DNA of 64,000 bases, taken from the NCBI GenBank assembly GCA_022984795.1, contig JALIHJ010000038.1:186001-250000 (forward strand), written 5' to 3'. Source of the DNA: Fabrea salina (lineage: Eukaryota; Ciliophora; Heterotrichea; Heterotrichida; Fabreidae). Below, one piece after another: positions 10,059 to 59,331 of the stretch (position 1 is its first letter; the number at the start of each line of letters is the position of its first letter). Under the pieces are notes generated by a model that saw only the letters and a program-made list of their open reading frames with translations, ran no database searches and had not been told where the DNA came from. The translations under genes and the position numbers were made by a program.

Positions 10059-12745
10059 TTAAGCCTTTTGGTTTTCTTGAGGGTTGTCTTTTAGTGAATC
10101 TTGGTGCTTTTCTGACTTGCTTTCTACTTTTTGGGTTTCGCCGTGAGTGTTTGCTGCTGGGCCAATGTAAGAAAGAACCACGGGCAAAAGAACCAATCCG
10201 TGCAGTGAACCAAACACAACTATTGCAAACCAACTCTTAAAGAACTGCGTAAATATGTATGAGTTAGAACCACTCAGCACAATGATGGCTAAGAAAGTCG
10301 AGATGCTTCCATTGACCACAGCAACTCCTAAGTCGTCCATAGCTTTGACGACTCTTTTGTTCTTAGTGGAACCGTCGCATCCTTTGAAGCTGTGTGCAAT
10401 GTGCACGTTGTAGTCTACAGTAACTCCAATTGACATGATTGCATTGGTGATTGTAACCATGTTCAGAGTGTCGTCCCAGAAGTAAAGCAGTGCTAACAAA
10501 GACACTATTGTCAGACTCACCATACTGAGCACCAAAACAGCCCCTAGGATGTCTGCAGTCATCACCAACACTATCACAAAAATAGTTGCAAGTGCAGATA
10601 CTATTGAAACAATAGCTTCTTCATCAAAGACAGCGTATTGTTCGTAATATAAGAACTCAGGGTTGTAAGGAAAGGTGTTTCCAGGCCCGTACTCATTGCA
10701 GATAACTTCTGGTGTCTTCCATTAAGTCTACACTGTCACTGGAGTTTTCTGGGTCGATCACTTCACTTCCTATTATGCTTCCAATTAACTCGCCGTTGCT
10801 GTTAAACTCCAAGTTAGACCCGTAGCGGTTGAATTCTTGAGTTTGCTTCCACTGTGCCATACACTCGTTAAAGTGCTCACTTGGAATAACTCCCTCTGAG
10901 TCCAAATTTTCCAAAACACTGCACTCGCCCCTTGCTACCCAAGAGTTAAAGTTGTTGTACCAAGAGTCAACAGACCCATTTACCACCCAGTCCTTAGTGC
11001 AGCCTTCACACTCTTGGAACTTCTCAGCCAGGGTAACTAAGGACTTCTGGACCTCCTCGTTTTTAAAGTCTGCGTCTACTGTGTAGACTCTTAAGCTTTG
11101 GCCTTGCTGGTTGAAGTACTGGTCTCTGACTTCAAAGGTATCTTTGATTTCAGCGTCTCCAGTTACAAACCACTCCAAGTCAAAGTCCATCTTGAGTTCA
11201 GTGGCTCCCCACACGTTTACTGCAAAGAAGGCTGCAAATATAACCAAAACAGCTATTTTAACAGGAGTCTTTGTGAGGAAAGGAGCGTAGTAGTCCCTCA
11301 TGAACTTTTTGCTCAAGGGTTCTTTCACAGAGCCGTCTTGGTTGTAAATGTACTTTCCGTAACAACAAGGTTTTGACTCAGGTTTGCAGAAACACAACCC
11401 ACAAAAGTCACCCATCCTCCTCTTAGTTCTTCTTAAGTCAAGTGCCACAGCTGCTGAAAACAAAGTGATTTGGTTAAAGTAGTCAAAAAACATCCCCAAA
11501 CAAGTGAAGATTGCAAAGTTCCTAATTGCTGGCAAGGAAATAATGCTGCTAATTGCAAAGCTGCAAACGTTAGTCAGCGAAGTAATAGTTATGCTGACTC
11601 CTGCGTGCTTCAGCATGTAGTTCATCTTGTAAGAAGGAGACTGTTCAATGTCCACTTGGTTCAAAGTCATCAACAGCACGTACATGTCATCCACTCCAAT
11701 TCCAATCAACAGAAAAGGAAGTACACTCACTACTCCTGAACCTTCCAGTCCAAAGTATGTTCCCAGACCCAGTGCTTCCACGTATGCCATGAATATCCCA
11801 ATCAAGCCTACCAAGGACACTCCTAGTCTAGAGTTGTAGGTGTACAACTTGCCCACCACCAAAAAGGTGTAAAGTATTATCAGAACTATTCCTATCTGAA
11901 CTAGCATCAAGTCTCCCTGTAAGAGTGCCTTCTAAGCCTCTAGAAATTCCAGTTGAGCTGTATAAGTAAAGCTCTACATGTTCTGAGTTAGAATTGAACT
12001 CGTCAATAAAGTCCTCCCACTCAACGTCGTAGCCTTCGTAGTACTCTTCGTCTTCTTTAGCGTTGAAGTAGTAAGTCCAAGAAATTGCAGCTGCTTTCTG
12101 GACGTTGTTGGTACCATCTTCATTAATGGTTATTTCACTAGGCTCTGTAGTTCCAAACATTGACTCCACGTTGATGTAACTCGAACTTCCTTCTGGGTAA
12201 AGAGTAGGATGCCCTTTGCCTGAGTTGATTCTTTGCAGTAATTCATCATCACTTGTAACATCAATTACATACCCGTCATTATCAGAAGTTCTGAAGAACT
12301 CAAGTGGGTGGTTTGAAGTTTCACAGGTTCCATCTTCATCGTTCTTGAAGCAGTAGTCTTCGAACTTGTTGTCTCCGTCCTGGACTTCGTTTTTAAATCT
12401 TTGGTCAAATTCTAGAATTTCGCGGTAGGCCTCCAGTGTAATTATGTTTTCGGAGTTCTTCGCAACTGCGTAAATAACGTTTCTAGTGGGTTGTTCTGAA
12501 AAAACTTCGTTCACTGTGTCCTTGTCTTCAAGAGCCTGACATCCAATTGGGGTCCATTGATCTTCATCTGTAGATTCCTCGTAAATAGTGAATCCGTACA
12601 CCAGCGAGAAGAAAATCACCAAGGAAACAGCCATTATTGGAAGGGGGAACCTATTGACTATTTCTCCCCACTTGCCAAAGACCCCTTCTAAGAAGTCGTT
12701 GACTTTTTGTGATATCACGTAAAGTACACTTTTTTCTTTTGCCAT
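10059..12745 (-). CDS. Patched/NPC1-type RND membrane protein, one 16-nt intron and one 1-nt frameshift
   Basis: Two exons, 10732-12745 and 10059-10715. Together they give about 889 residues once a 16-nt intron is removed and one extra G is ignored (11915-11917). Architecture: N-terminal helix (IMAVSLVIFFSLVYGF), first lumenal domain, a sterol-sensing/RND block starting 'GDLMLVQIGIVLIILYT', a second lumenal domain, and a second helix bundle. The proton-relay type motifs GIGVDDMYVL and GVTVDYNVHIAHS are present in the two halves, as in Patched-domain proteins and bacterial RND pumps. The family moves sterols or other lipids. Removing one base restores TLTGDLMLVQ across the frameshift, which is what the family shows at this point. 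It could be a sequencing error, a real lesion or recoding. Confidence 0.8.
10716..10731 (-). other. 16-nt intron in the RND protein gene
   Basis: On the coding strand the intron reads GTAGACTTAATGGAAG. Removing it joins ...DS to TPEVICNEYGPG, carries the frame past an otherwise immediate TGA, and restores the C-terminal half. It is less canonical than the 15-nt introns in this window (GTAGA rather than GTAAG) but keeps an A at position 10. Confidence 0.7.
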
Positions 12746-12815
12746 TATTAGGAGTCACTTTACCCAGAGTTAAATGTCAATAACCAGTAATCTCGTTATA
12801 AAGCTTCTAGAACAT

Positions 12816-13958: not shown

Positions 13959-13970
13959 TTACAATATTAC

Positions 13971-18500: not shown

Positions 18501-19231
18501 GCAACTGTATAGTTGTAGAAAATAGTTTTTTTCAAAAAGTTTTGTTCTTCTTGGGTTTTTAAGTCTTCTGATATAAAGACTCCGTCTAAGTAGGACACTT
18601 GAGGAACGTAGTACACTACAAAGGTGCGGTAGTTACTGAGTTCGCAAATGGGGTTAGTTCCGAATTCACAAGACCCCAAATAAAGTTCTTTTAAGGGCTC
18701 AACAAAGGATAACAAGTAAAGGTTCTCTAAACTCTCTATGGAGTTTCCTGAAAGGTTCAAGTTACTTAGGTTCTTTAGTTCCAAAACTTGTTTAGAGACC
18801 CATGAAAGTTGGTTTCCGGCTGCCCACAGTTCACGGATGCTTTTAAGAGCTTTAACTCCTTTTAAGTTTGCCAAGTAGTTGTTGTTTACCCAAAGAGTTT
18901 TAAGGCCACTAGGCAACTTCATAGAAGCAAACTCGGATATGGAGTTGTTAGACAAGTCAAGTTTCTCAAGTTTACTCAAAGGCAACAAGTCAACAGTTTC
19001 TATGGCATTTTCGTTTAGCCACAACTCCTTTAAGTTGCTTAACGAATTCAAAGCCCCTACTTCGCTTAAACAACACCTGCACAAACTCAAACTTTTTAGC
19101 AGATAAAACTCTTTCAACACCTCTAAACTAGGAATCGTTTCCATGCAAAGGTCCAAACTAGTTATCTTGCAAGCCTCTTCGTAAGTAGACTTTCCACTCC
19201 ACTTTAACTAAGTAATCCTTACTGCTTCCAT
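15560..19231 (-). CDS. LRRC9: LRRC9-like leucine-rich repeat protein with a 9-nt first exon
   Basis: 1,218 residues from two exons: 19223-19231 (ATG plus two codons) and 15560-19207, separated by a 15-nt intron. Architecture is LRR block, linker, LRR block. The first repeats (about 20-190) are followed by a non-repeat region containing 'DSTKDWYRDCCEYVYSKY', RIIRVIKVHN and 'WFFFDNQLVLPEYLIDFEY', which closely match human LRRC9 at the same place. SDS22-like repeats with capping motifs follow (about 590-850), then more after residue 900. LRRC9 is found mainly in ciliated organisms and is thought to be an axonemal or basal-body-associated protein; its molecular role is poorly known. The ATG directly abuts the TAA of the upstream PLAC8 gene. 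The stop is TAG. Confidence 0.82.
19208..19222 (-). other. 15-nt intron in LRRC9
   Basis: Coding-strand sequence GTAAGGATTACTTAG, phase 0 after the third codon. Without removal, TAG stops the frame after three codons; removal joins MEA to LKWSGKSTYEEACKITSLDL and so to the long LRR frame, which otherwise has no convincing ATG until residue 27. Confidence 0.85.
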
Positions 19232-21091: not shown

Positions 21092-22450
21092 ATGGCCGAA
21101 CTCGAAAAACTCAAGTCCTTACTTGAACAATCAAAAGGAGAAAAGGACCAGAACCTGCAAGAACACCTCACAAAAGTATTTTCGCAGTTGATATTTGACT
21201 ACCCAAGGGACCCTTTGTCTTCCTTGGAACTGACTTCTCTGCAAGTGAAATCCAACTCTTTCAGTTACCAGCCCACACCCGCCCAAAGTTCTTTGAAGGA
21301 GTCCTTTGCCCAAGTAGCTCCACTAGTCAAACAAGCCCAGGACCTAATCAAGAAGCCCATGGAAGAAAACGAAGAAGGCAAACTCGTCGAAGCAGTCCCT
21401 GAACCCCTTCCCCACATTCCTGACCTGCTCCAAGAACGCAAAGTACTTTCTGCTGCTGGAATCGACTTGGGCGAAGAAGAAACTTTCAGACTCCAACAAG
21501 CACTTAAGTCCTTAGTCAGGGACAAAGGAGCTAAAGAAGTAAGGCTCTGGGGCAAAATCATAGGCACTCAAAAAGACTACTATGTTGTAGAAGGCGTTGG
21601 CGAACCCAACGAAGAAGAAGACAGACCTAACGACTTCGAAAAAAGAGGAGAAGGAGTCAACGCTTACACCTACTGGGTCACTAACAGTGTGTACCAAGAA
21701 TTCCAAGAACTCCCTGACGTAAACCCAGACCAACTCAAAGCTGCAAGGACTGTCAGGAAGCTTTTCACAGGAGACCTTGAAGCAGAGATTGTGACCAACC
21801 CACACTTCCCCGGAAAGGAAAAAGACCTTTTGCGGGCCCAAATAGCCAGAATTACTCACGGAACCTCCATCATACCCAAAGGACTTTACAGAGTCCAAGA
21901 AGACTCCCCTCAAGAAGTCGAAGCTGACGAAGAAGCTGTTACTCCCAGTGCCAAAGAACTCTCAAGTCTGGATGGGTGGGTCCACTTCCAACCAGGCATC
22001 CTCAAAGCAGGCCGGATTGTCCACATGGAACCTGAACCACCTGAAGAAGAAGACATCGACATTGACGAACTCAAAGCTAAGATTGTAGAAGAAGATCCAT
22101 TTGACCCAAGACTCAAAACCATCACTGAAGATAAAGGCCTTCCAAGTGTTGGGAGGGCTTGGGTAGGCAAAACTGTAGGAGACCCCCAAGAGTACGAAGA
22201 ATACCCCCCTAAGGAAAACCACACTACTTTTGCTAAGACTGTGATTAGGTCTTTGTGGTGGCCCGGAGCAGTGACAGTACAGCAGAGCCGCAACTGGGTT
22301 AGCTTCTACATTGGCGATGGACTTAAGGCCGCAACGAGCAAGTTCTACCCAGTGAGTCCCCCTCCAGTGTCTGAGGAACCCCAAGACCCCCAAGAACAGT
22401 CTGACCCCTACCCTGAAAACCCCCCTGAAGAAACTCCTCCAGAAGAATAA
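21092..22450 (+). CDS. RSPH4A: Radial spoke head protein 4/6
   Basis: 452 residues, covering the radial spoke head domain of the RSPH4A/RSPH6A/Chlamydomonas RSP4-RSP6 family. Diagnostic segments are 'EVRLWGKIIGTQKDYYVVEG', 'GVNAYTYWVTNS', 'FTGDLEAEIVTNPHFPGKE', 'LLRAQIARITHGTSIIPKG', 'GWVHFQPGILKAGRI' and the end 'SLWWPGAVTVQQSRNWVSFY' with the usual IGDGLK. The tail is proline- and glutamate-rich. The protein forms the spoke head that contacts the central pair in motile cilia. The last 230 bp of the coding region (from 22221) are included in the 2,622-bp tandem unit, so 3' fragments of this gene recur at 24843 and 27465. Confidence 0.93.
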   Translation: MAELEKLKSLLEQSKGEKDQNLQEHLTKVFSQLIFDYPRDPLSSLELTSLQVKSNSFSYQPTPAQSSLKESFAQVAPLVKQAQDLIKKPMEENEEGKLVEAVPEPLPHIPDLLQERKVLSAAGIDLGEEETFRLQQALKSLVRDKGAKEVRLWGKIIGTQKDYYVVEGVGEPNEEEDRPNDFEKRGEGVNAYTYWVTNSVYQEFQELPDVNPDQLKAARTVRKLFTGDLEAEIVTNPHFPGKEKDLLRAQIARITHGTSIIPKGLYRVQEDSPQEVEADEEAVTPSAKELSSLDGWVHFQPGILKAGRIVHMEPEPPEEEDIDIDELKAKIVEEDPFDPRLKTITEDKGLPSVGRAWVGKTVGDPQEYEEYPPKENHTTFAKTVIRSLWWPGAVTVQQSRNWVSFYIGDGLKAATSKFYPVSPPPVSEEPQDPQEQSDPYPENPPEETPPEE

Positions 22451-22460
22451 TTTAACTAGT

Positions 22461-23366
22461 TTATTTCTCAATAGGAAGAACTTTAGGTTCGCGCTTGATA
22501 ATCTGGGCCTTCAAGGGCAGTACTCCAAACCCAAGTGCAGCCATAACAATCCAACCAATGAGCAAGTAAGAAGCTGTGCTTTCACTGCTGTCAGTAATAG
22601 TTGCACATATAAAGAACCAAAACTGCCCAAACAGAACAGCCATTCTGGAACTTGCCACAAGGAGTTCTTGGTAGCACTCAGCAAATGCCAAGTATGCAAT
22701 TACAACTGCTGTAGCAAGAATACCAGGCCAGGGCAACTTGAGTGGGGCAAACAAACTAACCACGGCTAAGATGAGTAGTTTGTAAATTCCAGGGAAGTAG
22801 CTTTCATTTCCCCACCTTTTCTCGATTCCGTTTCTTTCAGACTTCAAAACAGGGAAAATCACTCCTGCCAAAAAGTAAGCCAAGGCTATAACTAAAAACC
22901 CTATTTCAATCAGGGCCATTTGCCCAGTTTCCCAGCAAGTCACGTTGTTGTAAGAGTCTATCTCTCCGGATCCGTCGCAGAACTGCACTTCAGTCATGTG
23001 AGCCACTATGGGCACAAATCCAATTCCAAAAACAATATGGTCGAAGAACCAAATGACAGGCGTTGCAGGAGAGTTCTGCTGCTTGTTCCACCTGTGGATC
23101 TGAGTTGCAAACACAAAGTAAGCAACTGAGGGAATGATTACAAGCACTATTGCAATAACATAAAGCGCAATAAACGCGTTTCCGTCGAACCTCAGAGCTA
23201 ATGCTTTTAAAACGTCAAAAAAGTCATTTGCCCCTGAATTCCAGGAGTCTCCGGGCTTAGGTGCGTCCTTTATAAAGGACATTGCTTGCAAGTGCTCAAT
23301 AAGCATTTCGCAGCCCAGTGCTGCTATTGCCAAGTACTTATTGTTGTAAAGGGCTTTTGGTTCCAT
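22461..23366 (-). CDS. Seven-helix membrane protein, unknown (copy 1)
   Basis: 301 residues, not recognised. Hydrophobic segments lie at about 63-88, 103-124, 150-174, 194-208, 213-233, 239-258 and 265-285, so about seven membrane helices. The loop between the second and third contains two cysteines (130 and 144) and an N-glycosylation sequon (NVT, 141-143), suggesting that this loop faces outside. The tail is short and basic. It ends 10 bp from the convergent radial spoke gene, and its ATG is 23 bp from the stop of the PG-repeat gene upstream on the same strand. The same gene recurs with identical translation at 25083 and 27705. Confidence 0.8.
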   Translation of the reverse strand: MEPKALYNNKYLAIAALGCEMLIEHLQAMSFIKDAPKPGDSWNSGANDFFDVLKALALRFDGNAFIALYVIAIVLVIIPSVAYFVFATQIHRWNKQQNSPATPVIWFFDHIVFGIGFVPIVAHMTEVQFCDGSGEIDSYNNVTCWETGQMALIEIGFLVIALAYFLAGVIFPVLKSERNGIEKRWGNESYFPGIYKLLILAVVSLFAPLKLPWPGILATAVVIAYLAFAECYQELLVASSRMAVLFGQFWFFICATITDSSESTASYLLIGWIVMAALGFGVLPLKAQIIKREPKVLPIEK

Positions 23367-23389
23367 TTATTATTGTTCAACATTTTAAA

Positions 23390-25072: not shown

Positions 25073-25082
25073 TTTAACTAGT

Positions 25083-25988: not shown

Positions 25989-26011
25989 TTATTATTGTTC
26001 AACATTTTAAA

Positions 26012-27694: not shown

Positions 27695-27704
27695 TTTAAC
27701 TAGT

Positions 27705-28610: not shown

Positions 28611-28633
28611 TTATTATTGTTCAACATTTTAAA

Positions 28634-30363: not shown

Positions 30364-31677
30364 TTAAATTCTTATCTGGGAAGTTCCAGGACGGTCCAAA
30401 AACTTCTTTTTGTAAACAGGTTCTTTGAGGAGGTTCTTTGGGTCTGTGCTTAAAAACATCACGTGGTGGGTTCCAGCTGCTATTTGCAAAGCCACTTCTC
30501 CACCTAAGAAGTCACTTGCCAGCTTAACTGGGGTTAGTTGGTCTTCTTCTTCTTTGTTTCCTAAAACGTAGTTCAGCCCAGATCCCCAACTGTACACTTC
30601 TCCTTGCTTGGTCAGGGCGTAAGTAAACTCGTCCCCACAAGTTATTTTCTGTATGTGTTCAGGCAACTCAATGAGCTCCGGAGTGTTTACCTTGCGCTTC
30701 TGGCCTCCTAGTCCTAGTTGCCCGTACAGGTTCATGCCTGTTCCGTAGACCTTTCCGTCAGACGCTAAAAACACACTGAAGTACTCTCCTCCTGAAATGT
30801 CAACTACGTCTATTCCTTCTAAGTCTTCTACCCACTCCGGAGTAGTTACGTTTTCAAAGTGGCCCAACCCCAACTGCCCGTCTAAGTTCAGACCCCAACC
30901 GCAAATGTAACCTGCAGGGTTGTCGTGGTAAGTCACTTGTTTGTAAAAAGAGTGGTTTCCACAAGCCCACACGTTCTTAACTTCCCTCACAGGCAAAGAG
31001 TAGATCTTAAGTCCCCTTTCACTTCTGTTGCGCAAAGCAGGTGTCCTTCCAATCTTGCCAGAACTGCAGTCTCCCCAGCAGTACACCTTTCCTACTCCTT
31101 TTTTGTTGATTGTCATTATGATGGCATGGTTTATCCCACTAGTCACTTTCACAGGCTTTTCGTAAGACAGTTCCGAAGACTTTACTTTTTGGGGCAAGCG
31201 CTGTGGGGGGGCTATTTCGCCACCTCCAGGACTCTAAGTAACTCTTACTCGGAAAGAACCCCAAAAGTACACGTTGCGTTTTTTGTTTTTGATTGCAATT
31301 GCCAAGCAGTGGTTGTCCCCTGCAGAAACCTGCAGAACTGGAGTAGGAATGTCTACTTTTTCGGGAGAAATGCCTGAACCTGAATGGCCCAAAGCTCCGT
31401 CGTCGTTGCAGCCCCAAGAGTAGAGTTCGCCATCGGAGGCTATAGCTAAGGTGTGCATTGACCCGCAAACCACCCTTAACAGGTAGGGTTTTAAATTCAA
31501 ACTAGTAGGTTTAAGAAGGATCTTGTCGTGTTCTCTTGCTTCTTTGTTGTACATGTAGTGACTCAAGTAAGGTTCTTCAAAAGGAATTCCTGACTGGTTG
31601 TAGTCTGAAGACCCCAGTGTGTATAGAGAACAAGGTATCCACTTTGAAGGAAATCTATTTATGTTAACTTCATTCAT
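30364..31677 (-). CDS. RCC1-repeat beta-propeller protein, one 15-nt intron
   Basis: Exons 31249-31677 and 30364-31233 give 432 residues. RCC1 blades are clear: 'GSMHTLAIASDGELYSWGCN', 'SAGDNHCLAIA', 'GWGLNLDGQLGLGHF', 'GTGMNLYGQLGLGG', CGDEFTYALTKQGEVYSWG. A single seven-bladed propeller accounts for the length. RCC1-like proteins range from Ran exchange factors to ciliary (RPGR) and scaffold proteins; no Ran-GEF-specific feature or extra domain is seen, so the partner is unknown. It lies among ciliary genes. The start is preceded by TTATAA a few bases upstream. Intron removal fuses FWGSFR to SPGGGEIAPPQ. Confidence 0.85.
31234..31248 (-). other. 15-nt intron in the RCC1-repeat gene
   Basis: Coding-strand sequence GTAAGAGTTACTTAG, phase 0. 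Left in place it ends the frame at TAG in the middle of the propeller; removed, both halves join in frame to one seven-bladed length. Confidence 0.9.
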
Positions 31678-31693: not shown

Positions 31694-32206
31694 TTACTCC
31701 TTGTTAATTGCGAACCCTTGAGTAGGTCCATGGGCAGCCTTCTGAGCAGGTTGCTTGGACTCTTCTTTCAAGTTCAAAATTTCTTGTTCGGCTTTTTTTT
31801 TGTATTCAGAGTGAAGCTTCAGGTGGTTGCTAAATAGTGGTTACCGAAAAGTTTCCTTGAGCTTTTTGTTCTCGAGTTCTAGGTTTTTGATTCTTTGTGT
31901 TTTCTTCAAACTGAGTTTTTCTTTTAACTTAGAAAGTTCAACTTCGTAGGTCTGCAAAGCTTCTTTTGCCCTTTGCAACTGGATTTCAAGTAAGTCTTTG
32001 TGCTCAAGGACTTCTTCTATTTCGCCAATGTTGAGGTTACTAGGTATTTTCACCACTACTTCTGCTCCAAACTCTTCTTCTTCTACTTTTTGGAGTCTAA
32101 ACAGTTCTTGGGGTTCCTGACCTAAGTTCTTTCGGCACTCAGCCAAAACTTCTTCGCGGCCTCCTGAAACCTCAAAAGCTTCAGTCAAAAGTGAAATTCG
32201 CACCAT
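31694..32206 (-). CDS. Coiled-coil protein, one 15-nt intron, unknown
   Basis: Exons 31845-32206 and 31694-31829 give 165 residues from the ATG at 32206. The N-terminal 60 residues are acidic with no known domain ('LTEAFEVSGGREEVLAECRK'). From about 75 to 145 it is one long charged coiled coil ('LQTYEVELSKLKEKLSLKK', then after the intron NHLKLHSEYKKKAEQEILNL). The frame would otherwise stop at TAA five bases into the intron. I do not recognise the family; length and position among ARL6, RCC1 and dynein genes suggest a ciliary or cytoskeletal role, as inference only. Its ATG is 4 bp from the divergent ARL6 ATG. Confidence 0.75.
31830..31844 (-). other. 15-nt intron in coiled-coil gene
   Basis: Coding-strand sequence GTAACCACTATTTAG, with A at position 10. 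Removal joins KETFR to NHLKLHSEYKKK and continues the coiled coil to a proper TAA 16 bp before the RCC1-repeat gene. Confidence 0.85.
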
Positions 32207-45843: not shown

Positions 45844-48800
45844 ATGTTTGAAAGCTTAATTGAAAAAATACTTCTAGCGAAGCTCGGAAGGTTCATAGAA
45901 GGCCTCAACAAAGAGCAACTGAAGGTTGGTTTGTGGTCTGGAGACATCACTCTTGAAAACGTGTACCTTAAGTCTGATGCACTTTTGTCTCTCCAACTCC
46001 CCTTTGTTCTGAAATACGGACGCCTGACTCGGTTGGTAGTGAAAGTTCCTTGGACAAGACTTTCCAGCAGTCCTGTTGAAATCAAGATCCAGGGACTTTA
46101 CGTACTCGTGACTCCCCACGACAAGTCCGAGTGGGACTACAGCCAACAAGGCGAAGTCTTGAAAAAGCTCGACCTGATCAGCACCCACGAAACTCGTCTC
46201 CAGCAAAAAAACACCCTTCTTTCTGCCGAAGAAGACCTCAAGCAAAAAACCTACTTAGAAAAACTCACTGCCCGAGTTCTGGACAACTTGAAAGTAACTA
46301 TTGAAGACATCCACGTAAGGTTCGAACAAGACATGCTGGGCAGAAAGTTTTCGTGTGGAGTTACTTTGGAAAGAACTGAGTGCTTCACAACTAACCAAGA
46401 CTGGAACATCGAGTTTGCTGACAGGTACCAAAGCGGAAAAGCTACAATGAGCATTTACAAAGTGCTCAACGTAGTTGGGTTGGGCGTTTACTGGAACTCA
46501 GGAGAGTCCCTGATGCTGCACAAAAACAAACCTGAACAAGAAGTACTTTCTACAATGCACAGTTTAATCCACCAGAAAGACATGGAGTTTTTGATCTCGC
46601 CTATGAACGTGCAGGCCAAAGTGCAGCACTCAAACGACCTAACTAGTTTCGACAAACCCCGCTACACCCTAAGTGTAAGCTTAAACGAAGTAGTTACTTG
46701 CTTCCAAAAAAGACAGTTCCACGACACCATTAAACTAGTAGAGTACTTTGCAGACTACAACAAGTTCATTTTGAAGGCGTAAGGTTTACTTAGTGAAAAC
46801 AAAAAGAAGTTCAGGATCTTTGCTCCCCAAGAAAGAACTCCCAATGAACTCTGGAAGTTCGCTATTGAGTGCGTCAAAAAAACCGTCAAGCAAAGAAAAA
46901 ACCGAGCAGTGAACATGTTTGAAATGCCACCAGACATGAAAGCCAAACACGAAGAAAGGTTCAAAATGCTCCACAGAAAACTCAAAAAACACGGAGAACT
47001 TAGTCCTGACTTCAGGTCTGAGTACGAAAACATCATTTACTTAAGTTCTTTAGAAAACTTGTACGAGTGGACTTCTAAAGTCTTTGCTGTTTTAGAAAAA
47101 GAAGCTGGAAAACCCAAACCTGAACCCAAAAAAGGCTGGTTCAGTTCTTGGTGGGGGTCCACAAACTCCCAACAAGAAGAGGAACTTTACGAAAAAATAT
47201 TTGAAGACATTGACGTTTCACAGCAAGACTTCCAAGTCCAAATTCCCAGACACTACGTTTGGCTGGAACTCCAATTCAACCTAGACAAAGGAATTTTCAA
47301 ACTCAACAAAAAGATTTCAGAGTCCCAAGACCAAAGCTTATCCTTCACCTACGAAGGACTTTGTGCCCAAGTAGGCATGAGGCAACCCGGAGGCGACTTT
47401 TCTGTCAGCATGCAGAACTTTTCAGTCCAAACTGACTCAGAAACTGTTTGCCAGAAACTAAGCTGCTCAAGTTACCCAGTTTGGCAAGTTGACCTAAACA
47501 CCAAACCACTTCAAATGGAATGCGAAGCAAGTCTACACCTCCAGTCGCAGCCACTGGAGATCAACTACAGTTCCGAAGCTGTTTCCCAAATAATATCTTT
47601 CTTTGTTGTCCCAAATGCAGACCAAAACGCCAAAATGGCTGCTTGGGACACTATTCAGGAACTCCAGGACACCACCCAAGGAACCATTACTGACTTGTTG
47701 TACGGAGAAACCAAGTACCTAATCCACATAGCAGTTAGTGGGCCTCGAGTTAGAATTCCCTGTGCAAACAATAAAGGTAACTTTTTAGTTAACCTGGGCA
47801 AACTCAAACTAAACAACAGTTTAGAAATCAACGAAGGAATGTACGAAAACTTCAAAGTGTCTGTAAGTGACATAGAACTGCTGTACGAAGAAGAAGTTGA
47901 AGTCCCAGTTATTAGCAAGTTCGGAATCAAAACCAAAATGGACTTTATGAAGTCCAGGTTCAGAAAAAGAAAGTGGGACCTTTCCGACCCTAGCTTGTTT
48001 TCAGAACCTGACTTTGTTTTCAGAGGGAAACTTCCTAGTTTCACTGCGTTTTTGTCCCCTTCAATATACAACAAGTTACTTAAGTTGCCTGAAGTGTTTT
48101 CTATCAAAGAAGACGTTTGGAGCTCAATTTCTTTGGAAAAGTCCGAAATACTCAAAAGTGCAGCTTTGATTTCCAAACTTAACAAAAAGGGTACTGGAGT
48201 CCAGAGTTGGTACAAGTACTTAGCAGTGCTTTCAGGCCCTTACATTTACTTCTTCAACAACGAAAAAGAAACCTTTGCTTCTTCTTACTTCTACGTCAAG
48301 GACTGCGACATAGTTGACGTTTCAGGGGAAATCGGAGTGGACTACTCAATCAAGTTAGAAAACAGGTTTGGTCAGTGCGTGCTGAGCTTTGACAAAGAAC
48401 CACTCTTCAGAAGGTGGTTCCAGGGACTCAGTGACAAAGTAACTGACTTAGAAAGTTACACTAGTGCAGCAGCTAGTTCTTACTCCAAGTCAAAAGTGAG
48501 CAAGAGTTTAGTGAACTTTACCTTTGCCGTTCCAGCCTTTTCAGTAGTACTTACTAACGAAGAAAGAGTAAAGCTTACTCAATTCGAACTTGGAAAGATA
48601 AAAACTGAAGTTGCTGTAGAGTCCATGAAACTAAATGCAAGTGCTTCTTTAGCTTCTTTGTTGGTGCATGACCTACAAAGACCCTCTACACCTCACTTTA
48701 GCACACTCATCAGAACTTACCACCACGAAAAGTTAATTCACCTTGACTTGTGCATGTTGAACAATAACCACCCTAACTACCAGCACACAGACATGGACGT

Positions 48801-51800
48801 ACAAGTAGCCTTTGGAAGTGTAGAACTTAACTGGAACCCAGACTTACTTACAAGCATCATGAACTTTTTTGAGTTTGCAGGTTACTCAGAACAAGCTGTC
48901 CAAAAAACTGAGGCAGTGGGGGAGTTGCAGCCATCCCACGTGTTGCTTAACTTGAAGGTGTTTATTTCCAACATTGACTTGTACTTAAACACAGTGGAAA
49001 ACGAAATCTCACTTGCAGTGGCTTCTATCAGCAACTTGAACTCTAGAGTTCTGCTGATGAACGGAGGCTGGAACTGGGAAGGAGAGCTGGGCAACCTAGA
49101 AGTATCCGACCTAACTAACTACCCCTCAACTGCGATTCAAGAAAAAGTCAAGCCCTTTAAGTTGTTTTCTTTGCGTGAAGGGTCCAAAAGTTTGTTGAGG
49201 TTCAGCATTTTCTTTTTTTCAGAGGACAACCCTGTCAAGCCCAAAGACATTGGGGGCTCAGTGGACTTAGAACTTTCTTCAGTCCAGTTGGTGTTTTTGA
49301 ACCAGCCGTTCATGCGCATAGTTGACTTCTTCAACTACAAAATACTTGGACTCTTTGACACTCAGTCCAGAGTTAGGGACGCCAACCACTGGTCTCCTAT
49401 CTACAAGTTGTCCCACTTACTTAACTTGTCAGCAGTCCAGTCACTGCAAGAAGGAATCTCTGAACAGGCACTTAGCTTCACTAAGTTCTCAATCCAAATC
49501 CACAACCCCTTAGTAACACTTACTCCCAGACCTGATTATGAAGACTACTTTTTAGCTGACTTGGGAAACATCACCATTTCAAACTACCAAAAACTTTCAG
49601 ACAAAAGAGGAGACACAGTGTGGGATGACGTTTACAAAATCCAAATGGCCAACATAAACATCAGTGTGCACGACCAAAAAGTAGCTGAGGAGTTTAACTT
49701 AGACATGGAAGTTGAACGCCCAGTGATGACTCCTAAGCAAGAAAGAAACCCCAGCATTGACAAAAGGTTCTTTATTTTGGGGAAGTGTGCCAAGATCTAC
49801 CTAACTCTCGACCAAGCCAACTACTGCTTGCTTCTGAAGCTGTTTGACTTGAACTTGTCTTACGACGACCAGTTAGACAACTTCATCAACCCTAACTGTG
49901 CACCGCCTATCCAGCCCAGTGACGACCCTGACCACGGAGGAGTGTTCATTGACTTAAACTTAGACATAGACATTATTTCTGTGCTTCTGAACCACGAAGC
50001 CGAAAATGTTTTGGAAATTTTCACGTGCAAGCAAACTCTTGTTCTCAAAAAGTACAACGACTACTCTATGGACATCGGATTCGAAAGCTTTAACTTGTTG
50101 GGGCTGATTAGTTCCGAAATGGTTGAGTCCGAACTAGCTAGCGAGGAACTAGTGGGCCACGTGTTCACAGTTCCCTCTGAAACTTTGCTAGGACTGCTTG
50201 ACTACGACTCTAGCATGCGGCTTTCGCATGTACTTCTAGGCCCTCTTTACGACTCTGAAAACGAAACCAACAAAGCCTTTACTCTGGACCTCAAGAGTGC
50301 CTGGGACGGAAACAAAGACATCGTTATAGAAATGAGTCAGTTCAGAATAAACTTCCACTACGCAGCTATACTGCAGGTCCAGAACTTCTTTTACTACGGA
50401 ATTCCAGACTACTCAAAAGACTACCACACGCCCTTTGACTACATGGACAAGTTCAGACCTTCACTTGGACTAGTTTCTAAAGAACTCCAAACTACTTACG
50501 AAGCTCCCCGTCTAGGCGTTAACTTGTTCATCAAACAACCTATTTTGGTGCTGCCTAGTTTTGTTTCTAGCAAAGTCTTAGTAGCCCAGTCAGACGTGAC
50601 TTTTGTTTACATGCGCGAGCACGAAGGACTGTCTAAAGGAGGCGAAGTTCCTTCTTGTGTAAAGAGGTTCACTAGTCACGAACTAGAAATCTACTCCTGC
50701 AACCTAGAACAGTTGTCCAACGAGTCTTCTTTCCAAAGCATACGCAAACGCAAAATAGTAGAACCTCTGCAGGCTATTTGGGAAAGCACTGAAGAAAGAG
50801 TCCAGCAAACCTACATGTACAGCGTTAACTACATGCTAGGAGCTCTCCAGGCAACTATTTCCCACAGAGACTTACTGTTGCTAGGGAACATCATGAAGTA
50901 CCAACAAGAAACCCTTCAAAAGGGCAACGACTTGATTGAAGCACTCCAGTTCATTGAGAACTTCACTGAAATTGACGAGGTTCCTGAAATCAACGAAACT
51001 ATTCTAAGGTTGGAAGAAAAACCTGTTTTCAGGAGAAGTGTAACTCAACGCAGAAAAAGCACACTTGACAGTTCACAAATCAAAAAGTCACTTGGCGAAG
51101 AACCCCAAGAAAAGTTCACAACTATCACTAACTTCTCTTTGGCAGGACTCTACGCTATCTTAGTTAACGATGCTTCAGGAGCCTACTCTCCCTTGATCTC
51201 AGTAAACTTAGGTGACCTTAACGCCCGCATGACTCAGAAGGAAAGTAACTGGACTCTAGCAACTATGATATCCCTTAAGTCCAACTTCTACAACCCCATT
51301 TTCGACGTGTGGGAGCCTTTGGTGGAACTCTTCAACACCAGAATCGACGTAGTGGACTCTCCTGAAAACACTCCTAAACAACAAGTCATTGTGCTGGTTG
51401 AAGAAGAAATGCCTTTCAACATCAACATTTCTGAAATCATGGTTAACCACATGTTTTTAGTTTCTGAGTCCTGGACCCAGACTTCCCAACCTTCTGAAGA
51501 AACCAAGGAAGTAGTTTCATTACTGGCAATCCAAAACAAAACAGGCTACCCCATCATGGCTGAAAAAAAGTCACACACAAACAACCAACAAACAGGCTCC
51601 CTTATAGTAATTGACCCTGACCAAACTCTTGACTACGAAGTAGACTCAACTGAAATCCGCAACTTAGACTTGTCAACTGAGTACTTCGACCTAACTCTCT
51701 ACAAAGAAAGCATTCCTCTGCAGCCAATTAAAGATGTCCCCATCAATAAGGTCCAGGCTTTAACTTACCTTGTTGAACTCGAAGGTGAAACTGTTCCTAT

Positions 51801-54800
51801 AAACGTAGAAATCAAACTAAACGGCACTAGAAAAGTCCTGACTGTGACTAGCAATGTTTTGATCGTCAACGAAACTGATTTTAACTTCAGAGTGCTTTTC
51901 AGCAAGCCCCACAAAACCAACGAAGTGGAGTGCTTAGCTGGGGCCGAGACTCCTGTTCCTGTTGACTTTGAAAAGCACTTACTAGGACTGGCTCCCAACC
52001 ACTTGAGTCTCCACGAGTGGAGTATGATTTCGCTGCAGGAGTTCTGTATGAGGAAACACGGCCACTGCACTGAAATCAGAATTGAAAACTTTTACTTAGT
52101 AGTTTACTTGCAAAAACTCAAGTCCAACCCCAAAGTGAGTTACTTGCACATCAAAGCACCTGTGATCTTCAGAAACTCACTGCCTTGCGAAATCGAGGTT
52201 AGCATGATCATTGACCGCAAAAAACACCTCGACACCCTTATATGTGTGCAGGGGACCAAACTAAGTTCCCATAAAGCGAGTGGATACAGTGAAACCAGCA
52301 TAGTGGTTACTTTGCCCAACATGAAAAAGTCAAGCATGGTTCCAATCATTTCAAGACGGGAAAAAACTCCTAGGTTCATCAACCTCCAGGACTTCAAGAA
52401 ACAAGGACTCCAGCTTCTTCTGGACTACAAAAACCAAGGAGCCCACATTTTTACCTTTTTTGTGGACTTAGTAGTTATCAACAACACCCAGTTGCCTGTT
52501 TCCTTCAGCTACAGAAAAAGAGGAACTTCAAAAACCATCCCTGCACAGAACTTCGAAACCAAAATGCTTCCCTGCAACTCCACCAAAAAGATGGCTGTCC
52601 ACCTAGGTTCCAAAAAGAGCCAGTACTTCAAAACAGGCGCAGTGGGGGCCCAAAGCTTAGTTTCTATAGAAAGCGAAAAAACTCCTAGTGGACATAAAAT
52701 GCTATACGAGTTTGTGTACGAAGTTTACTTGGCCCAAGCTATCAAAGACGAACTTCTCTTCACTAAAACAGTTGTGGTGTCCCCTAGGTTCTTGTTGGTC
52801 AACAAAATGGACCAAAGTTTGTTTTTGAAGCAGTACGGCAGTTCAAGTGCTGAAGTAGTTCTGACCAAAGAAACAACTATGCCTTTCCACTGGCCAGACA
52901 ACTCCCAACCCAACCAGTTACTCCAAGTCAAAGTTGCTGAGGGTTCTTGGGACTGGTCAGGTGCTCTGTCCATTTCCAGCATTGCTAACTTTGCTATTCA
53001 GTGCAAAAACTTAGAAGACTTCGGAATCTACAAGTTAGTGAACGTCCAAGTTAAGTTGATGAACTGCACTGCTTACGTGGTCTTTGAAGAAGAAGACGAA
53101 AACCAGTGCTCTTACAGAATCGAGAACCACTCTAAGTACATCTCTATGTTGGTTTACCAGCACAAGTCAAAGTCCCAGTCTAGGTGGATCAACGTAAACT
53201 CCTACTCAGCATTTGCCTGGGCACAGCCACTGAACGAGCACAGAATCAGCATTGAGTTTTTCGATGGGGCTTTGGAAGACTACCCTGTGCAGACAGGGGC
53301 CAAGTACTCCTTTTCCTTTGACAAAATCAACCAAACTTACATGATCAAAATCATGAAAACATCTGAGATCGGCCACATGCTTTACGGAATGACCTGCAAC
53401 GACGGCTCCACAAAAGTACTTAAGTTTGCTGACGTGCCTCTTGGAAGGTACGACCCCGAAAATGAAAGAATCTACACCCAGTACAACTTGAACATTTCTA
53501 GGTTCGGAATTAGTTTGGTGGAGCACTACCAAAACCAGTCTACTGAAATCATGTACTTTTCAGCCAAGGACTTAGTGGTTTTGGCCCAAAGAACTAAACA
53601 CCAGTGGAAGAGCGAAATGATCATCCAGTCAATGCAAATAGACAACCAGTACAACCCCAATGCCTTGTTTCCCGTTTTGCTTTACCCAGGGACCTCAGAA
53701 GTCCACAACGTTTTGCAACTCTCTTTGATTTCGTACATTGGAAGCCAAAACACCCGTCACTTTGAAACTTGTGAACTCTTGATCCAAGACCTTACTTTAA
53801 ACCTAGAGTCACTCATTGTCAAAAAACTACTCCAGATTTCCGGAAGGTTGTTTTTGGGGGAAAACCCAGTATACGAAGTAACTCAGCTTTACGAAATGAA
53901 TTCTTCAGAGTCCTGGATGCACCAAGAATTCCAAGTCCAGGACACTCGGTACTACTTTGAAAAACTCAAACTCTGCCCAATTAAGATTTTGATTTCCTTC
54001 GTTCCTCTCAAAGACTTAGAAGAGTCCTCAGTAGACAGCTTTGCTACTGTAGCAAACGCTCTGGGCATGGTTATAACTGCCATAGACTCTGCGCCCATAA
54101 GACTCTACTCAGTGGAGATGAACGACGTGTTTGGGTCTCGCTTCCAGATAATCATGGCCCTTTGGATGCACTACAAAGCCCAGCTAGCCAGTGAACTCTT
54201 CACACTTATAGGCCACGCAGAGATTCTCGGGAACCCCATAGGCTTGCTGAACAACTTAGGCACTGGAGTGTTTGACTTTTTTTACGAACCTGCCCAGGGA
54301 ATGATTCAGGGACCTGTCAGTGCTGGCAAAGGCTTAATCAAAGGAGCAGGGTCCTTGTTTAAGAACACAGTTGAAGGGACCTTTGGAACAGTTTCGAAAC
54401 TTGCGAACTCCTTTGCTACAGGGATCACCAACCTTACTCAGGACCACGACTACATTCTAGACCGCCAAAGAGAAAAGGCCAAAAACCGACCTGACAACGT
54501 TGTTTCGGGATTGGGCATGGGCTTCAAGTCCTTTTTCTCAGGAGTGGGAAAAGGACTCACTGGGATAGTCACTGACCCCGTTAAAGGCTACAAAAAAAAC
54601 AAGATAAAGGGAATGTTCATGGGAGGCTTCAGAGGGATATCTGGACTCGTGGTTAAACCCATGGCAGGTATGCTCGACGCTGCTTCTAGAACTGCTGAAG
54701 GCATCAAAAACACCACTAAGGTCTTTGAAAAAGCCACAACTTTCCAAAGACAACGTGCTCCAAGACCCCTTTACGGGCCAAACTGCATTTTGAAACCTTA

Positions 54801-55164
54801 CAACGAGTACGACGCTCAGGTTCTGTTCTTCATGGGACAACTCAAAAAAGGCATGTTTTGGAAAGAAAGGTTTATGGGACAAGTAGTGGCTAAGGACTTG
54901 AGGGGACAAGTTGTGGTTTGTGTGGTGTACCTGCACAAAACAGTTCTGGCAAACCCCAGGGACAAAAAGGTCACTTGGATTGTTGAAAACGAAAGCATAC
55001 TTACTACTGAAATCCTTGAAAAAGGAGTAGCCCTCCACACGCTTCCAAGCAACTACAAAAAAACTAAAAACAAAACAAGTTTCTTAGTTCCTTTGGCCCA
55101 GCAATCCCACAAGAGTCTTATTCACGACAAGATCCTTGAAGCCCTAAAATTCATCTTTAAGTAA
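45844..55164 (+). CDS. VPS13: VPS13 bridge-like lipid transfer protein, one 15-nt intron
   Basis: Exons 45844-46778 and 46794-55164 give 3,101 residues. The N-terminal chorein domain is clear ('MFESLIEKILLAKLGRFIEG', 'LWSGDITLENVYLKSDAL'). The RBG-repeat rod follows, then a PH-like insert at about 777-865 ('WYKYLAVLSGPYIYFFNNEK'), the VAB/SHR-BD region in the middle third, and the ATG2_C and DH-like/PH end ('GNPIGLLNNLGTGVFDFFYE', 'GFRGISGLVVKPMAG'). VPS13 proteins span contact sites and move phospholipids in bulk. The second exon's frame opens before any ATG, so the two frames belong to one gene joined by the intron. It ends 2 bp from a convergent gene. Confidence 0.95.
46779..46793 (+). other. 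15-nt intron in VPS13
   Basis: Sequence GTAAGGTTTACTTAG, phase 2, splitting an Ala codon (GC/T). Without removal the frame stops at TAA two bases in; with removal it continues ENKKKFRIFAPQERTP into the 2.7-kilocodon second exon. Confidence 0.93.
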
Positions 55165-55767: not shown

Positions 55768-58212
55768 ATGAACACCAGCGAAATCAAAAGCTCGCCATCC
55801 CAAACTTTACTAAGTGAACTCTGCAACAAGTTGAACTTAGACAGTCACATACGTCTAACTGCTGAAAACTACCTTTACGACTACAAGCAAAAGGATGACT
55901 CCTGGGACGAAGTCAAGTCCAAGTGCATTGTAAGGTGTGTAATTCTAGCAGCTTCTCGGAGCTCGCGGTCAGAAACTCGTCCTCTTTCTATAAGTGCACT
56001 GTTGCGAGACCCCTCAGCTCCAGACCTGCACACTTTTATTCTGAAGTTGAAGGAGTTCTCCCGCCTGAGTCTCGAAGATAATGTAAATGCTGAACTGCAG
56101 CGCATCATCAACAACTTTGCCTTTTCTTTGACTCTCTTCAACAAGTACGAAGAAGTCTGGGACAAAGTTAAGTTGGAAGGCCCAGAAGAAGACGTGAGGA
56201 AAATCAAAGACATGGGCTGGTTAGTTTTTTCACTTGCCAAAATCAACTTGCTCCAAAGAAGGAACGAAATCGTAGAATGCGCTTGCATGCTACTTGGGAC
56301 TTTTCACTTCATAGTCATGAACAGAGGGGACTCTGTAGAGTGTGCTGTGGAAAGGGACTCTGATAAAGTCCTTAGATTCTTGAGTGAAATCCTCAAAGCC
56401 CACCCCGAACAAGTCAACGTGTCTGCAACTCACCTTGCTTTGATGATTGAGCAGTTCAAAAAGCACGACGTCCTCAGAGGCACCCAGCCCAACTCTTCTA
56501 GTGTCCAGGGAATTTTGGACTCCCCACACCTTTCTTACAACCTCCAAAGCCTGAACCAGCACTATATCCAAAAACTGCTTCCTGACGACATTGACGAAAC
56601 TCACTTTATTTTTAAACAAACCAAAATCAGCACTCCCTTGAAGCCCCACGTAAACTACATCAAGTCCACACACAGGTTTTCTTCCCAAAGAGTTCTGAAC
56701 TACGAGGACGACGAAAACTTGTCAATTCACTCCAAACTCCACGAAATCAAGTTCCCCAACCAAGTAAGCAACTCACCTTATTCAATAAAAACCTTTCCAC
56801 CACCTACTCCCATGACTACTGCCATGGAAATGGACTCCTGGCTCAACTCCCACACTGACTCCCAGCTAATGGAACTTCCTGAAGTTGTAATGGAAAAACT
56901 CCCTGCTTCAGAACTCGAAATGGTTAAAAGGATTATAGTAGAATTCAAAAAAGAATTTGAAGTTCTTTTTGAAAAGTATGAAATTGGAAAGGTGCAGACT
57001 TCTAGTTTCTTAAGGGAGAACTTTAACATTGAGTCAATCAAGCAAAACGAAGTCAACAGCAAAGTCGAACTGACCTTTAAGTTATTTTACAAAGTGTTGT
57101 CAGGCCTCATAAGTAACGAAGAAAAACAACAAGAACTCAGGTCCGAAGCCAGGGATTTGTCCATAGTTTTGAAGAACGAAAACTTCTACAAAGCTATTTT
57201 GGCTTGTTGTCTCGAAACTCTGCTCTTCATCCACAACATCACTGCTTTGGAGTTCGAAGAAGTCCTTGACTTGTGCAAAGTCACAGCTTTCGACGCTTGG
57301 AAACTCATGAAGAACTTCATAGACTTCGACCCCAAAATCCCCACTCCTCTTCGCCAGTACTTCAAAAACCTCGAGTTAAGAGTCATTACTTCCCTGGCCT
57401 GGAACGACTCTTCCCCCATTCCTCACCTAATCAAACAGCACCTCAGCACCAACGAAGACATTTCCCATCCAGCACTTCTCATGTTCTGCCGGAGAGTCCT
57501 TTCTCACAGTGCAATTAGAATCATGGAACTCTCCCAAATGCTAGGTTTGGATGAAAGCATCAGGGAAGACATCTGGTCAGTTATGAAAAATGCTTTGAGT
57601 GAGGAAACCGAACTGTTCATCAATAGGCACATGGACCAGATTGTTATTTCCACTATTTACGGAGTTTGCAGGGCCAAAAACTTAAACGTCACTTTTAATA
57701 GCTTAATAACCAAGTACACAGAGTTCTACAGTGACTCAGGAAAACTCTTTAGACAAGTCCGCATAGACGACATGAACACTACCGGAGACATCATCCAGTT
57801 CTACAATGAAGTATTTGTGAGGCACATGAAGAACTACCTACTTGCTTTAAGCAGGTCCACAGCTCCTCCTGTTTCTAAGCCAAGACTCCCTGCGTTCAAC
57901 CCCTCAAGTCCACTTCCTCTAAGCCTTCCTCAGCCTATGATAAGCTACAGTCCCTCTCCTTCGCCCCTTCCTGTGCGTTCTCCCTTAAGGTCTCCTTTCA
58001 TGACTCCCCGGACTCGGCGACTGTATGCTTTTGGAGAGTCTCCTTCGGCTAACCTGGACTCCATAAACCGCATGATGCAGCGCAACGACAAGTTGTTTGA
58101 CGAAGAAGACTTGGGAAACCCCACCAAAAGACCCAAGCACATTGAAAAAATCTTCAACGAAGGCGAAATTGACGAGTGCTTGCCTGATGATTTTGCTGAT
58201 TTTAAAGACTAA
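55768..58212 (+). CDS. RB1: Retinoblastoma-family pocket protein
   Basis: 814 residues. An N-terminal cyclin-like helical region (about 1-250) is followed by pocket A starting 'TPMTTAMEMDSWLNS' (about 350-530) and pocket B ('PTPLRQYFKNLELRVITSLA', 'LLMFCRRVLSHSAIRIMELS', 'VISTIYGVCRAKNLNVTF', about 560-700). The C-terminal tail is rich in SP/TP sites and contains the conserved family ending 'RRLYAFGESPSANLDSINRM'. Pocket proteins hold E2F/DP and chromatin factors at S-phase genes and are released by CDK phosphorylation; the many SP/TP sites fit. A full RB in a heterotrich agrees with multi-copy RB families reported in ciliates. Confidence 0.92.
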   Translation: MNTSEIKSSPSQTLLSELCNKLNLDSHIRLTAENYLYDYKQKDDSWDEVKSKCIVRCVILAASRSSRSETRPLSISALLRDPSAPDLHTFILKLKEFSRLSLEDNVNAELQRIINNFAFSLTLFNKYEEVWDKVKLEGPEEDVRKIKDMGWLVFSLAKINLLQRRNEIVECACMLLGTFHFIVMNRGDSVECAVERDSDKVLRFLSEILKAHPEQVNVSATHLALMIEQFKKHDVLRGTQPNSSSVQGILDSPHLSYNLQSLNQHYIQKLLPDDIDETHFIFKQTKISTPLKPHVNYIKSTHRFSSQRVLNYEDDENLSIHSKLHEIKFPNQVSNSPYSIKTFPPPTPMTTAMEMDSWLNSHTDSQLMELPEVVMEKLPASELEMVKRIIVEFKKEFEVLFEKYEIGKVQTSSFLRENFNIESIKQNEVNSKVELTFKLFYKVLSGLISNEEKQQELRSEARDLSIVLKNENFYKAILACCLETLLFIHNITALEFEEVLDLCKVTAFDAWKLMKNFIDFDPKIPTPLRQYFKNLELRVITSLAWNDSSPIPHLIKQHLSTNEDISHPALLMFCRRVLSHSAIRIMELSQMLGLDESIREDIWSVMKNALSEETELFINRHMDQIVISTIYGVCRAKNLNVTFNSLITKYTEFYSDSGKLFRQVRIDDMNTTGDIIQFYNEVFVRHMKNYLLALSRSTAPPVSKPRLPAFNPSSPLPLSLPQPMISYSPSPSPLPVRSPLRSPFMTPRTRRLYAFGESPSANLDSINRMMQRNDKLFDEEDLGNPTKRPKHIEKIFNEGEIDECLPDDFADFKD

Positions 58213-58292
58213 TAACTAACTGTAAACTTCTAGAAAGTTTCCATAACATTGATATTTTACATGGACGTTCTAGAATGTAAAAAGGGCCTTAG

Positions 58293-58553: not shown

Positions 58554-58560
58554 TTCTTAG

Positions 58561-59331
58561 TTAGTCTTGTAACTGATTAGCTAGTTCTTCTTTGCCCCAG
58601 TCTGAGTAGAGTTGGTGCAGGTCTTTTTTAACCAGTTTTGTTTCTGAATTTGAAGCTCCGTGCCAGCTTAGTTTTAATTCGTAGGCTCTACCTGGAACTT
58701 ACCTTTTCAGTAAACTTTCAGCTTTTTCAAAATCAGACTTGGACTTGTGAACAAGACCTGCTTGTCTCAATGCTTTGACAGTATTAATGTTTCCTTTGCC
58801 ATAAGCCCTTTCAACTTCCTCCAGAGAAAGTTCTAGCACCTCCTGTGCTTCTTGGAGTTGCCCTAACATTCTAAGGCACTCTCCAATCCCCAAACGAGCT
58901 ACCATGAGGTCAGCAGGGCTGGAGTCTTGCCCTCTGAGTTCCAGCAACTTCCTGTAGAGCTCAAGGGCTCTTTGGAAGAGTTGGTTTCCTTTGCAAGCAA
59001 AGGCTAAGTTTTCCAGAATTTTCAATGACCAGTTGCCGGTTTCTTGGGACTTATGAGTTTTGTAGAGTTGTTCAAACACTTCTTGGGCTTTTTGGAAGTC
59101 CCCTTTGGCGTTGTACACCAGACCTAAGTTGGAAAGAGTGTTTCGGTGCATCCAGGAGTCTTCCCCCAAACTTTTGCTGAGGTTAAAAGCCTCCAAAGCT
59201 AGTTTTTGTGCCTAAGTTTGGTTTACGTCTTCGTAGTTGCCTGTGGAAGACAATTCGTTCAGTCTCCTATTGATTCTAGATATGTTAATTTCAGTTTGGC
59301 TAATGAGCCTTTTAAGACTACGAACAAGCAT
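58561..59331 (-). CDS. TPR-repeat protein with two 15-nt introns
   Basis: Three exons, 59227-59331, 58703-59211 and 58561-58687, give 246 residues. The middle holds four to five tetratricopeptide repeats of the kinesin-light-chain-like type ('LSNLGLVYNAKGDFQKAQEV', 'LENLAFACKGNQLFQRALEL', 'LGIGECLRMLGQLQEAQEVL', 'ALRQAGLVHKSKSDFEKAES'). The N-terminal exon adds a helix that leads straight into the first repeat (NYED joined to AQKLALEAF). The last exon adds a capping tail (RAYELKLSWHG...). It is a protein-interaction module with no identifiable partner. Without splicing only the central 166 codons would be seen. Confidence 0.85.
58688..58702 (-). other. 15-nt intron 2 of the TPR gene
   Basis: Coding-strand sequence GTAAGTTCCAGGTAG, phase 2, A at position 10. 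Removal joins SLLKR to AYELKLSWHGAS and carries the frame to the TAA at 58561. Confidence 0.88.
59212..59226 (-). other. 15-nt intron 1 of the TPR gene
   Basis: Coding-strand sequence GTAAACCAAACTTAG, phase 0, A at position 10. It ends in an in-frame TAG unless removed; removal connects the only upstream ATG (59331) to the repeats. Confidence 0.88.

What the first reader, a model, noticed from the sequence alone, without database searches (positions are those of the whole stretch)
10716..59226. Seven introns of 15-16 nt, among the shortest spliceosomal introns known
Six introns are exactly 15 nt (LRRC9, RCC1-repeat, coiled-coil, VPS13, TPR x2) and one is 16 nt (RND gene). The 15-mers share GTAA at the 5' end, AG at the 3' end and A at position 10; three differ only at positions 6-8 from GTAAGnnTTACTTAG. 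Every one removes an in-frame stop and joins two clearly coding frames. From established knowledge, such introns are known in heterotrich ciliates (Stentor, Blepharisma), so this is the strongest clue to the organism.
Basis: partly seen in the sequence, partly recalled or inferred. Interest (0 to 1): 0.85.

Follow-up and report, generated by a model that had tools for sequence, protein, structure and literature searches.

The report
Six probable 15-base introns
This stretch of what looks like a ciliate genome carries six probable introns only 15 bases long, the tiny kind already described from Stentor and its relatives; a claimed seventh, of 16 bases, is more likely ordinary coding sequence beside a one-base frame change.

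Summary
Six of the seven claimed introns hold up. Each is exactly 15 nt, reads GTAA-N5-A-NN-TAG, carries an in-frame TAA (phase 2) or TAG (phase 0), and its removal keeps one reading frame open. Two lie in TPR-matching stretches: TPR_12 scores 106.0 bits spliced, 92.4 with both retained; VPS13_N scores 304.0 against 299.3. RCC1 is neutral by profile; LRRC9 and the coiled coil rest on motif and frame.

The seventh (16 nt, 10716-10731) is not supported. Its letters encode part of a helix that aligns to Patched-1, and excising it lowers that match from 83.5 to 75.6 bits. It also lacks A at position 11, a weak point, since 191 of 633 Stentor 16-nt introns do too. The same gene has a second frame change near 11.9 kb.

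Length, ends and A10 match published Stentor introns (PMC9505925); heterotrich introns are reported as about 95% 15 nt (PMC11441545). High GC (43.7%) suggests Fabrea salina or kin; identity was not tested. No RNA evidence was available. Ordinary for heterotrichs.

The parts
19208..19222 (-).
   Evidence: exact fit to GTAAGNNTTACTTAG, and an in-frame ATG lies three codons upstream. LRR matches. Coding score of the left flank is -3.0 (only 3 of its 20 codons are exon). A start at 19144 without an intron is not excluded
31234..31248 (-). 15-nt intron GTAAGAGTTACTTAG, phase 0, in an RCC1-repeat gene (30364-31677)
   Evidence: one RCC1-like domain match (residues 18-403) runs across the junction; scores neutral (WD40_RLD 260.2 spliced, 258.9 retained; RCC1 186.3 spliced, 186.8 retained)
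31830..31844 (-). 15-nt intron GTAACCACTATTTAG, phase 2, in a coiled-coil gene (31694-32206)
   Evidence: both flanks coding-like in the spliced frame; no Pfam match at E up to 1
46779..46793 (+). 15-nt intron GTAAGGTTTACTTAG, phase 2, in a VPS13 gene (45844-55164, 3101 aa spliced)
   Evidence: VPS13_N 304.0 bits spliced, 299.3 retained; all 4 matched PDB sequences cover residue 312, the junction
58688..58702 (-). 15-nt intron GTAAGTTCCAGGTAG, phase 2, second intron of a TPR gene (58561-59331)
   Evidence: junction at residue 205 lies in the best TPR_12 stretch 139-210; TPR_12 106.0 bits spliced, 89.7 with this one retained
59212..59226 (-). 15-nt intron GTAAACCAAACTTAG, phase 0, first intron of the TPR gene
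   Evidence: TPR_12 106.0 bits spliced with 4 stretches, 97.1 with 3 stretches when this one is retained
10716..10731 (-). claimed 16-nt intron GTAGACTTAATGGAAG in a Patched/NPC1-like gene (10059-12745): NOT supported; read here as coding sequence beside a one-base frame change
   Evidence: C-terminal match to Patched-1 (7v6y) is 83.5 bits with these letters coding and 75.6 with them excised; position 11 is T

Best explanation
Six spliceosomal introns of 15 nt in the somatic-type genome of a heterotrich ciliate. Inferred mechanism: U1/U6 recognise GTAA(G), U2 presents A10, the 2'-OH of A10 attacks G1 to give a 10-nt lariat loop with a 5-nt tail ending in AG, and the exons are joined. If an intron is retained, the TAA in the 5' site (phase 2) or the TAG of the 3' site (phase 0) is an in-frame stop. 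Shown here: sequences, lengths, phases, in-frame stops, continuity of the reading frame and, for three junctions, a better fit to protein profiles. Inferred: splicing itself, the branch point, the lariat and the organism. The seventh candidate (16 nt) is coding sequence in a Patched-like gene that has two frame changes.
For: Motif and length. In-frame stops found without the motif: 4 of 5 with 30-codon flanks lie in it, while 14 of 6230 stop trinucleotides in the window do. With GTAA...TAG ends and 20-codon flanks (threshold 0), length 15 has 4 bridging cases and no other length from 9 to 60 has more than 1. Profile gains on splicing: TPR_12 and VPS13_N. Stentor introns match in length, ends and A10 (PMC9505925). 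Against the seventh.
Against: No RNA-seq or cDNA was available. With plain GT...AG ends length 15 does not stand out. With shorter flanks most motif-blind hits lie outside the motif (5 of 9, 7 of 11). A retained version always carries a 5-residue insertion, so the VPS13 gain of 4.7 bits is weak; RCC1 repeats score slightly better retained (186.8 against 186.3), and TPR with both introns retained (92.4) scores above TPR with only the second retained (89.7). The LRR-gene intron could be dispensed with by using a downstream ATG. The left flank of 58688 scores -0.9, though it is the best of the frames tested.
Confidence: 0.94

Rival explanations
1. All seven are introns, including the 16-mer at 10716-10731.
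For: It starts GT, ends AG and joins two coding-like frames (flank scores 12.1 and 6.6). Lack of A at position 11 is not fatal: 191 of 633 Stentor 16-nt introns have the branch A elsewhere.
Against: Its letters encode VDLME, part of a helix that aligns without gaps to Patched-1 (small gaps follow further on); excision lowers that domain from 83.5 to 75.6 bits for 7v6y, and the alignment then begins only after the junction. All 11 Patched-1 chain sequences listed fall, by 8.0 to 10.6 bits over the whole protein. The test is not fully even: the coding version is 5 residues longer and its dropped base was placed by me. NPC1 chains change by about half a bit, Dispatched 6xe6 and efflux pump 9j3d rise by about half a bit, and Pfam does not separate the readings (MMPL 36.5 against 36.6).
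Confidence: 0.08
2. The 15-mers are germline-limited DNA segments (IES-like) bounded by TA...TA.
For: All six contain TA at positions 2-3 and 13-14.
Against: TA-to-TA excision would remove 11 nt and gives a stop after 1 to 32 codons in 6 of 6, whereas 15-nt excision stays open past the 300 nt tested in 4 and to the gene end, 42 and 45 codons on, in 2.
Confidence: 0.01
3. The in-frame stops are pseudogene lesions, sequencing errors or reassigned codons.
For: The Patched-like gene in the same window does carry two frame changes.
Against: Unrelated lesions would not be expected in one 15-nt motif in the right register; ORFs of up to 4019 codons are open with all three standard stops in force.
Confidence: 0.03

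Closest known systems
Stentor coeruleus 15-nt introns (PMC9505925, sections read; the 2017 genome paper is not held)
   Same: 15 nt dominant, GT...AG with GTA strictly conserved, A at position 10, introns in a minority of genes (18.14% there; 5 of my 32 gene models here)
   Different: Here 4 of 6 have G at position 5 and AU content is 64.4% against 75.63% in Stentor; n is only six
Blepharisma stoltei 15-16 bp introns (PMC9942806, passages)
   Same: Length class, compact gene-dense genome
   Different: Blepharisma reads UGA as Trp and is 66% AT; this window is 43.7% GC and its long ORFs are open under the standard code
Fabrea salina introns (genome paper not held; PMC13344042 passage says a conserved branch A is reported for it)
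   Same: Heterotrich, GC above 38.32% and smallest known ciliate genome (PMC13166879 passage)
   Different: Its intron lengths and genetic code were not seen in any call; identity with this window not tested
Loxodes magnus introns (PMC11441545, passages)
   Same: Very short introns, in the sister class of heterotrichs
   Different: Mode 17 bp; under 16 bp negligible

Membership tests
Heterotrich 15-nt spliceosomal introns | Length 15 nt | tested here: met
   6 of 7 candidates are 15 nt
Heterotrich 15-nt spliceosomal introns | GT...AG with GTA conserved | tested here: met
   6 of 6 start GTAA and end TAG
Heterotrich 15-nt spliceosomal introns | A at position 10 | tested here: met
Heterotrich 15-nt spliceosomal introns | Removal restores the protein | tested here: met
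   Open frame in 6 of 6; profile gain at 3 junctions, neutral at RCC1, no profile test of the junction for the LRR and coiled-coil genes
Heterotrich 15-nt spliceosomal introns | Removed from RNA by the spliceosome | not testable with these tools
   No transcripts held
Heterotrich 16-nt introns (for 10716-10731) | A at position 11 | tested here: not met
   Position 11 is T; typical but not strict, 442 of 633 in Stentor
Heterotrich 16-nt introns (for 10716-10731) | Removal restores the protein | tested here: not met
   Removal opens the frame but lowers the Patched-1 domain match from 83.5 to 75.6 bits
Fabrea salina genome | Sequence identity to the published assembly | not testable with these tools
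   No genome is held for the window and the genome paper is not held

The most novel reading that the evidence does not exclude
In 15-nt introns the splice sites double as stop codons: GTAA gives an in-frame TAA in phase 2 and the final TAG an in-frame stop in phase 0, while phase 1 of this consensus gives none. All six introns here are in phase 0 or 2. Such a genome may avoid phase 1, so that every retained intron is detectable by translation although intron length is locked to a multiple of three.
Probability: 0.2. Interest if true: 0.45.

Novelty: already known. Interest (0 to 1): 0.25.

Why it matters
It finds the heterotrich intron type in a GC-richer sequence and shows a practical trap: where introns are this short, a one-base frame change can be mistaken for a 16-nt intron. 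The phase pattern, if it holds genome-wide, would link intron length, splice-site sequence and translation-dependent quality control.

Tried and rejected
Whole-genome search for the motif: no genome is held for this window. Generic GT...AG length scans do not single out 15. ARAGORN found 0 tRNAs and Rfam 0 matches at gathering score, so no snRNA was found in the window. Relatives: a 1000-aa ORF segment in viral contigs and the long VPS13 exon in genome contigs gave no confirmed relative. Other 16-mers: 504-519 (+), GTAA...TAG, reads as coding in the first gene; 11886-11901 (-), GT...AG, would remove residues that align ungapped with Patched-1, but I did not test its excision. IES reading: rejected.

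Phase-1 introns: in the scan, the sense-strand hits inside genes other than the six are 930-944 (+; phase 1 of its gene, but removal makes a stop), 39302-39316 (-) and 56650-56664 (+), both phase 0 without a stop and read as coding. So no phase-1 candidate was found, but a stop-free intron off this motif would be missed. If phases were equal, none of six in phase 1 has probability (2/3)^6, about 0.09 (worked by hand): weak.

Literature: 8 paper searches. PMC9505925: outline with abstract and three sections. PMC5014332: abstract and outline. PMC9942806, PMC11441545, PMC13166879, PMC10980511, PMC10946202, PMC4967479, PMC6935857, PMC13344042, PMC12911363: passages found by term. PMC10946202 says that a conserved A near the intron 3' end is seen in Stentor and some spirotrichs but was not detected in the other species it analysed, so A10 is not universal in ciliates. 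Whether the phase idea is already in print for heterotrichs I cannot say: one search listed 20 of 26 papers and I opened one of them.

Full report
Observation. The window is 64,000 bases at 43.7% GC. I drew up 32 gene models by hand from the ORF table; the median of their 31 gaps is 21 bases. These spans are approximate: the first gene is cut by the window edge, four models (g10, g15 and two tandem copies) do not begin at an ATG as listed, the coiled-coil end was set two bases short, and possible small genes at 58.2-60.3 kb were left out. Aligned, positions 1-4 are GTAA, 10 is A and 13-15 are TAG in all six; position 5 is G in four.

More than chance. GTAANNNNNANNTAG: 7 found, 1.99 expected, 1 of 100 shuffles reached 7. 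GTAAGNNTTACTTAG: 3 found, 0 in 100 shuffles. The looser motif alone is only moderately rare; the strength is in its coincidence with in-frame stops. A scan that does not use the motif, looking for stops between coding-looking flanks in one frame, found 5 places with 30-codon flanks, 4 of them in the motif; with 20 codons 4 of 9, with 15 codons 4 of 11. The other places lie, by their coordinates, on the opposite strand of a gene model, in another frame, just upstream of a gene, or between genes. Of 6230 stop trinucleotides on both strands, 14 lie in the motif in the right register, two for each of the 7 motif hits. Generic GT...AG scans by length gave no peak at 15; with GTAA...TAG ends, length 15 had four cases and no other length from 9 to 60 more than one (20-codon flanks, threshold 0). 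In the stricter version (threshold 2) it was three cases against one at length 60.

Protein evidence. TPR gene: TPR_12 scores 106.0 bits with both 15-mers removed, 89.7 with the second retained, 97.1 with the first retained and 92.4 with both retained. VPS13: 304.0 against 299.3 bits; the 4 matched PDB sequences all cover residue 312, the junction, the two alignments shown having small gaps near it. RCC1: one RCC1-like domain match runs across the junction, but scores hardly change (WD40_RLD 260.2 against 258.9; RCC1 repeat 186.3 against 186.8), so the profile is neutral. LRR gene: the PDB search hit general leucine-rich-repeat proteins and no listed stretch (best 60 of 207) starts before residue 12, so it does not test the junction after residue 3. 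Coiled coil: no Pfam match; its support is motif, frame and coding-like flanks. Since retention always adds five residues, a few bits of difference are weak evidence.

The seventh candidate. The 16-mer at 10716-10731 lies in a Patched/NPC1-like gene (Sterol-sensing 119.5 bits, Patched 108.1 bits). Read as coding, its letters begin a helix that aligns without gaps with Patched-1, and that domain scores 83.5 bits for 7v6y; with the 16-mer excised it scores 75.6 and the alignment starts only after the junction. All 11 Patched-1 sequences listed fall, by 8.0 to 10.6 bits over the whole protein. NPC1 chains change by about half a bit, Dispatched 6xe6 and efflux pump 9j3d rise by about half a bit, and Pfam does not separate the readings. 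The comparison is not fully even, because the coding version is five residues longer and I chose where to leave out a base. Position 11 is T, not A, but 191 of 633 Stentor 16-nt introns also have the branch A elsewhere. The gene changes frame again at 11828-11931, in the same direction. The only GT...AG 16-mer my scans listed there, 11886-11901, would remove residues that align ungapped with Patched-1; its excision was not tested. The frame change near 10.7 kb is thus best read as one extra base downstream of the 16-mer. Whether it is an assembly error, a lesion or frameshifting is open.

Organism. Stop codons of the 32 models: 28 TAA and 2 TAG, plus two more TAA (g15, coiled coil) once their ends are corrected; no TGA. 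Identical tandem copies are included. ORFs of up to 4019 codons are open with the three standard stops in force. Blepharisma reads UGA as Trp and is 66% AT. Stentor uses the standard code and no call excludes it; that its genome is far more AT-rich is my recall. [quoted passage not shown] A conserved branch A is reported for Fabrea (PMC13344042). That Fabrea introns are tiny is my recall of the abstract of a paper that is not held. I put Fabrea salina or a close relative at about 0.7, as a judgement.

Comparison. Stentor: 8173 of 8806 introns are 15 nt, 8005 of these with A at position 10; GUA is stringently conserved (PMC9505925). The six introns here fit these features. Loxodes introns are longer, mode 17 bp. 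Ciliate introns of a length divisible by three often carry in-frame stops, explained by nonsense-mediated decay, in the five genera studied by PMC5014332 (abstract). The phases here (three phase 0, three phase 2, no phase 1) agree with that, but six introns cannot establish it.

Verdict. Six ordinary heterotrich-type introns, well supported without RNA data; the seventh rejected. Known biology, low to moderate interest.

Noticed in passing
window 10059-12745 (-): Patched/NPC1-like gene with two frame changes in the same direction (between 11828 and 11931, and near 10.70 kb). I did not search the other genes systematically for such changes.
   Followed up: partly
window 22221-30088: Three tandem copies of a 2622-bp unit, identical throughout, carrying the end of the gene at 21092-22450 and two further genes whose functions I did not search; very recent duplication or assembly artefact.
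   Followed up: partly
window 61603-63900: About 2.3 kb without a recognised gene (37.2% GC, longest open stretch 80 codons) in a tightly packed region; no Rfam match.
   Followed up: partly
whole window: TAA is the stop in 30 of 32 hand-made gene models (identical tandem copies included), TAG in 2, TGA in none.
   Followed up: partly
window 32732-32735: Two convergent genes (32211-32735 + and 32732-44791 -) overlap by four bases at their stop codons.
   Followed up: no
window 49509-49523 (-): GTAAGTGTTACTAAG, one mismatch from the intron consensus, lies antisense to VPS13; taken as chance.
   Followed up: no
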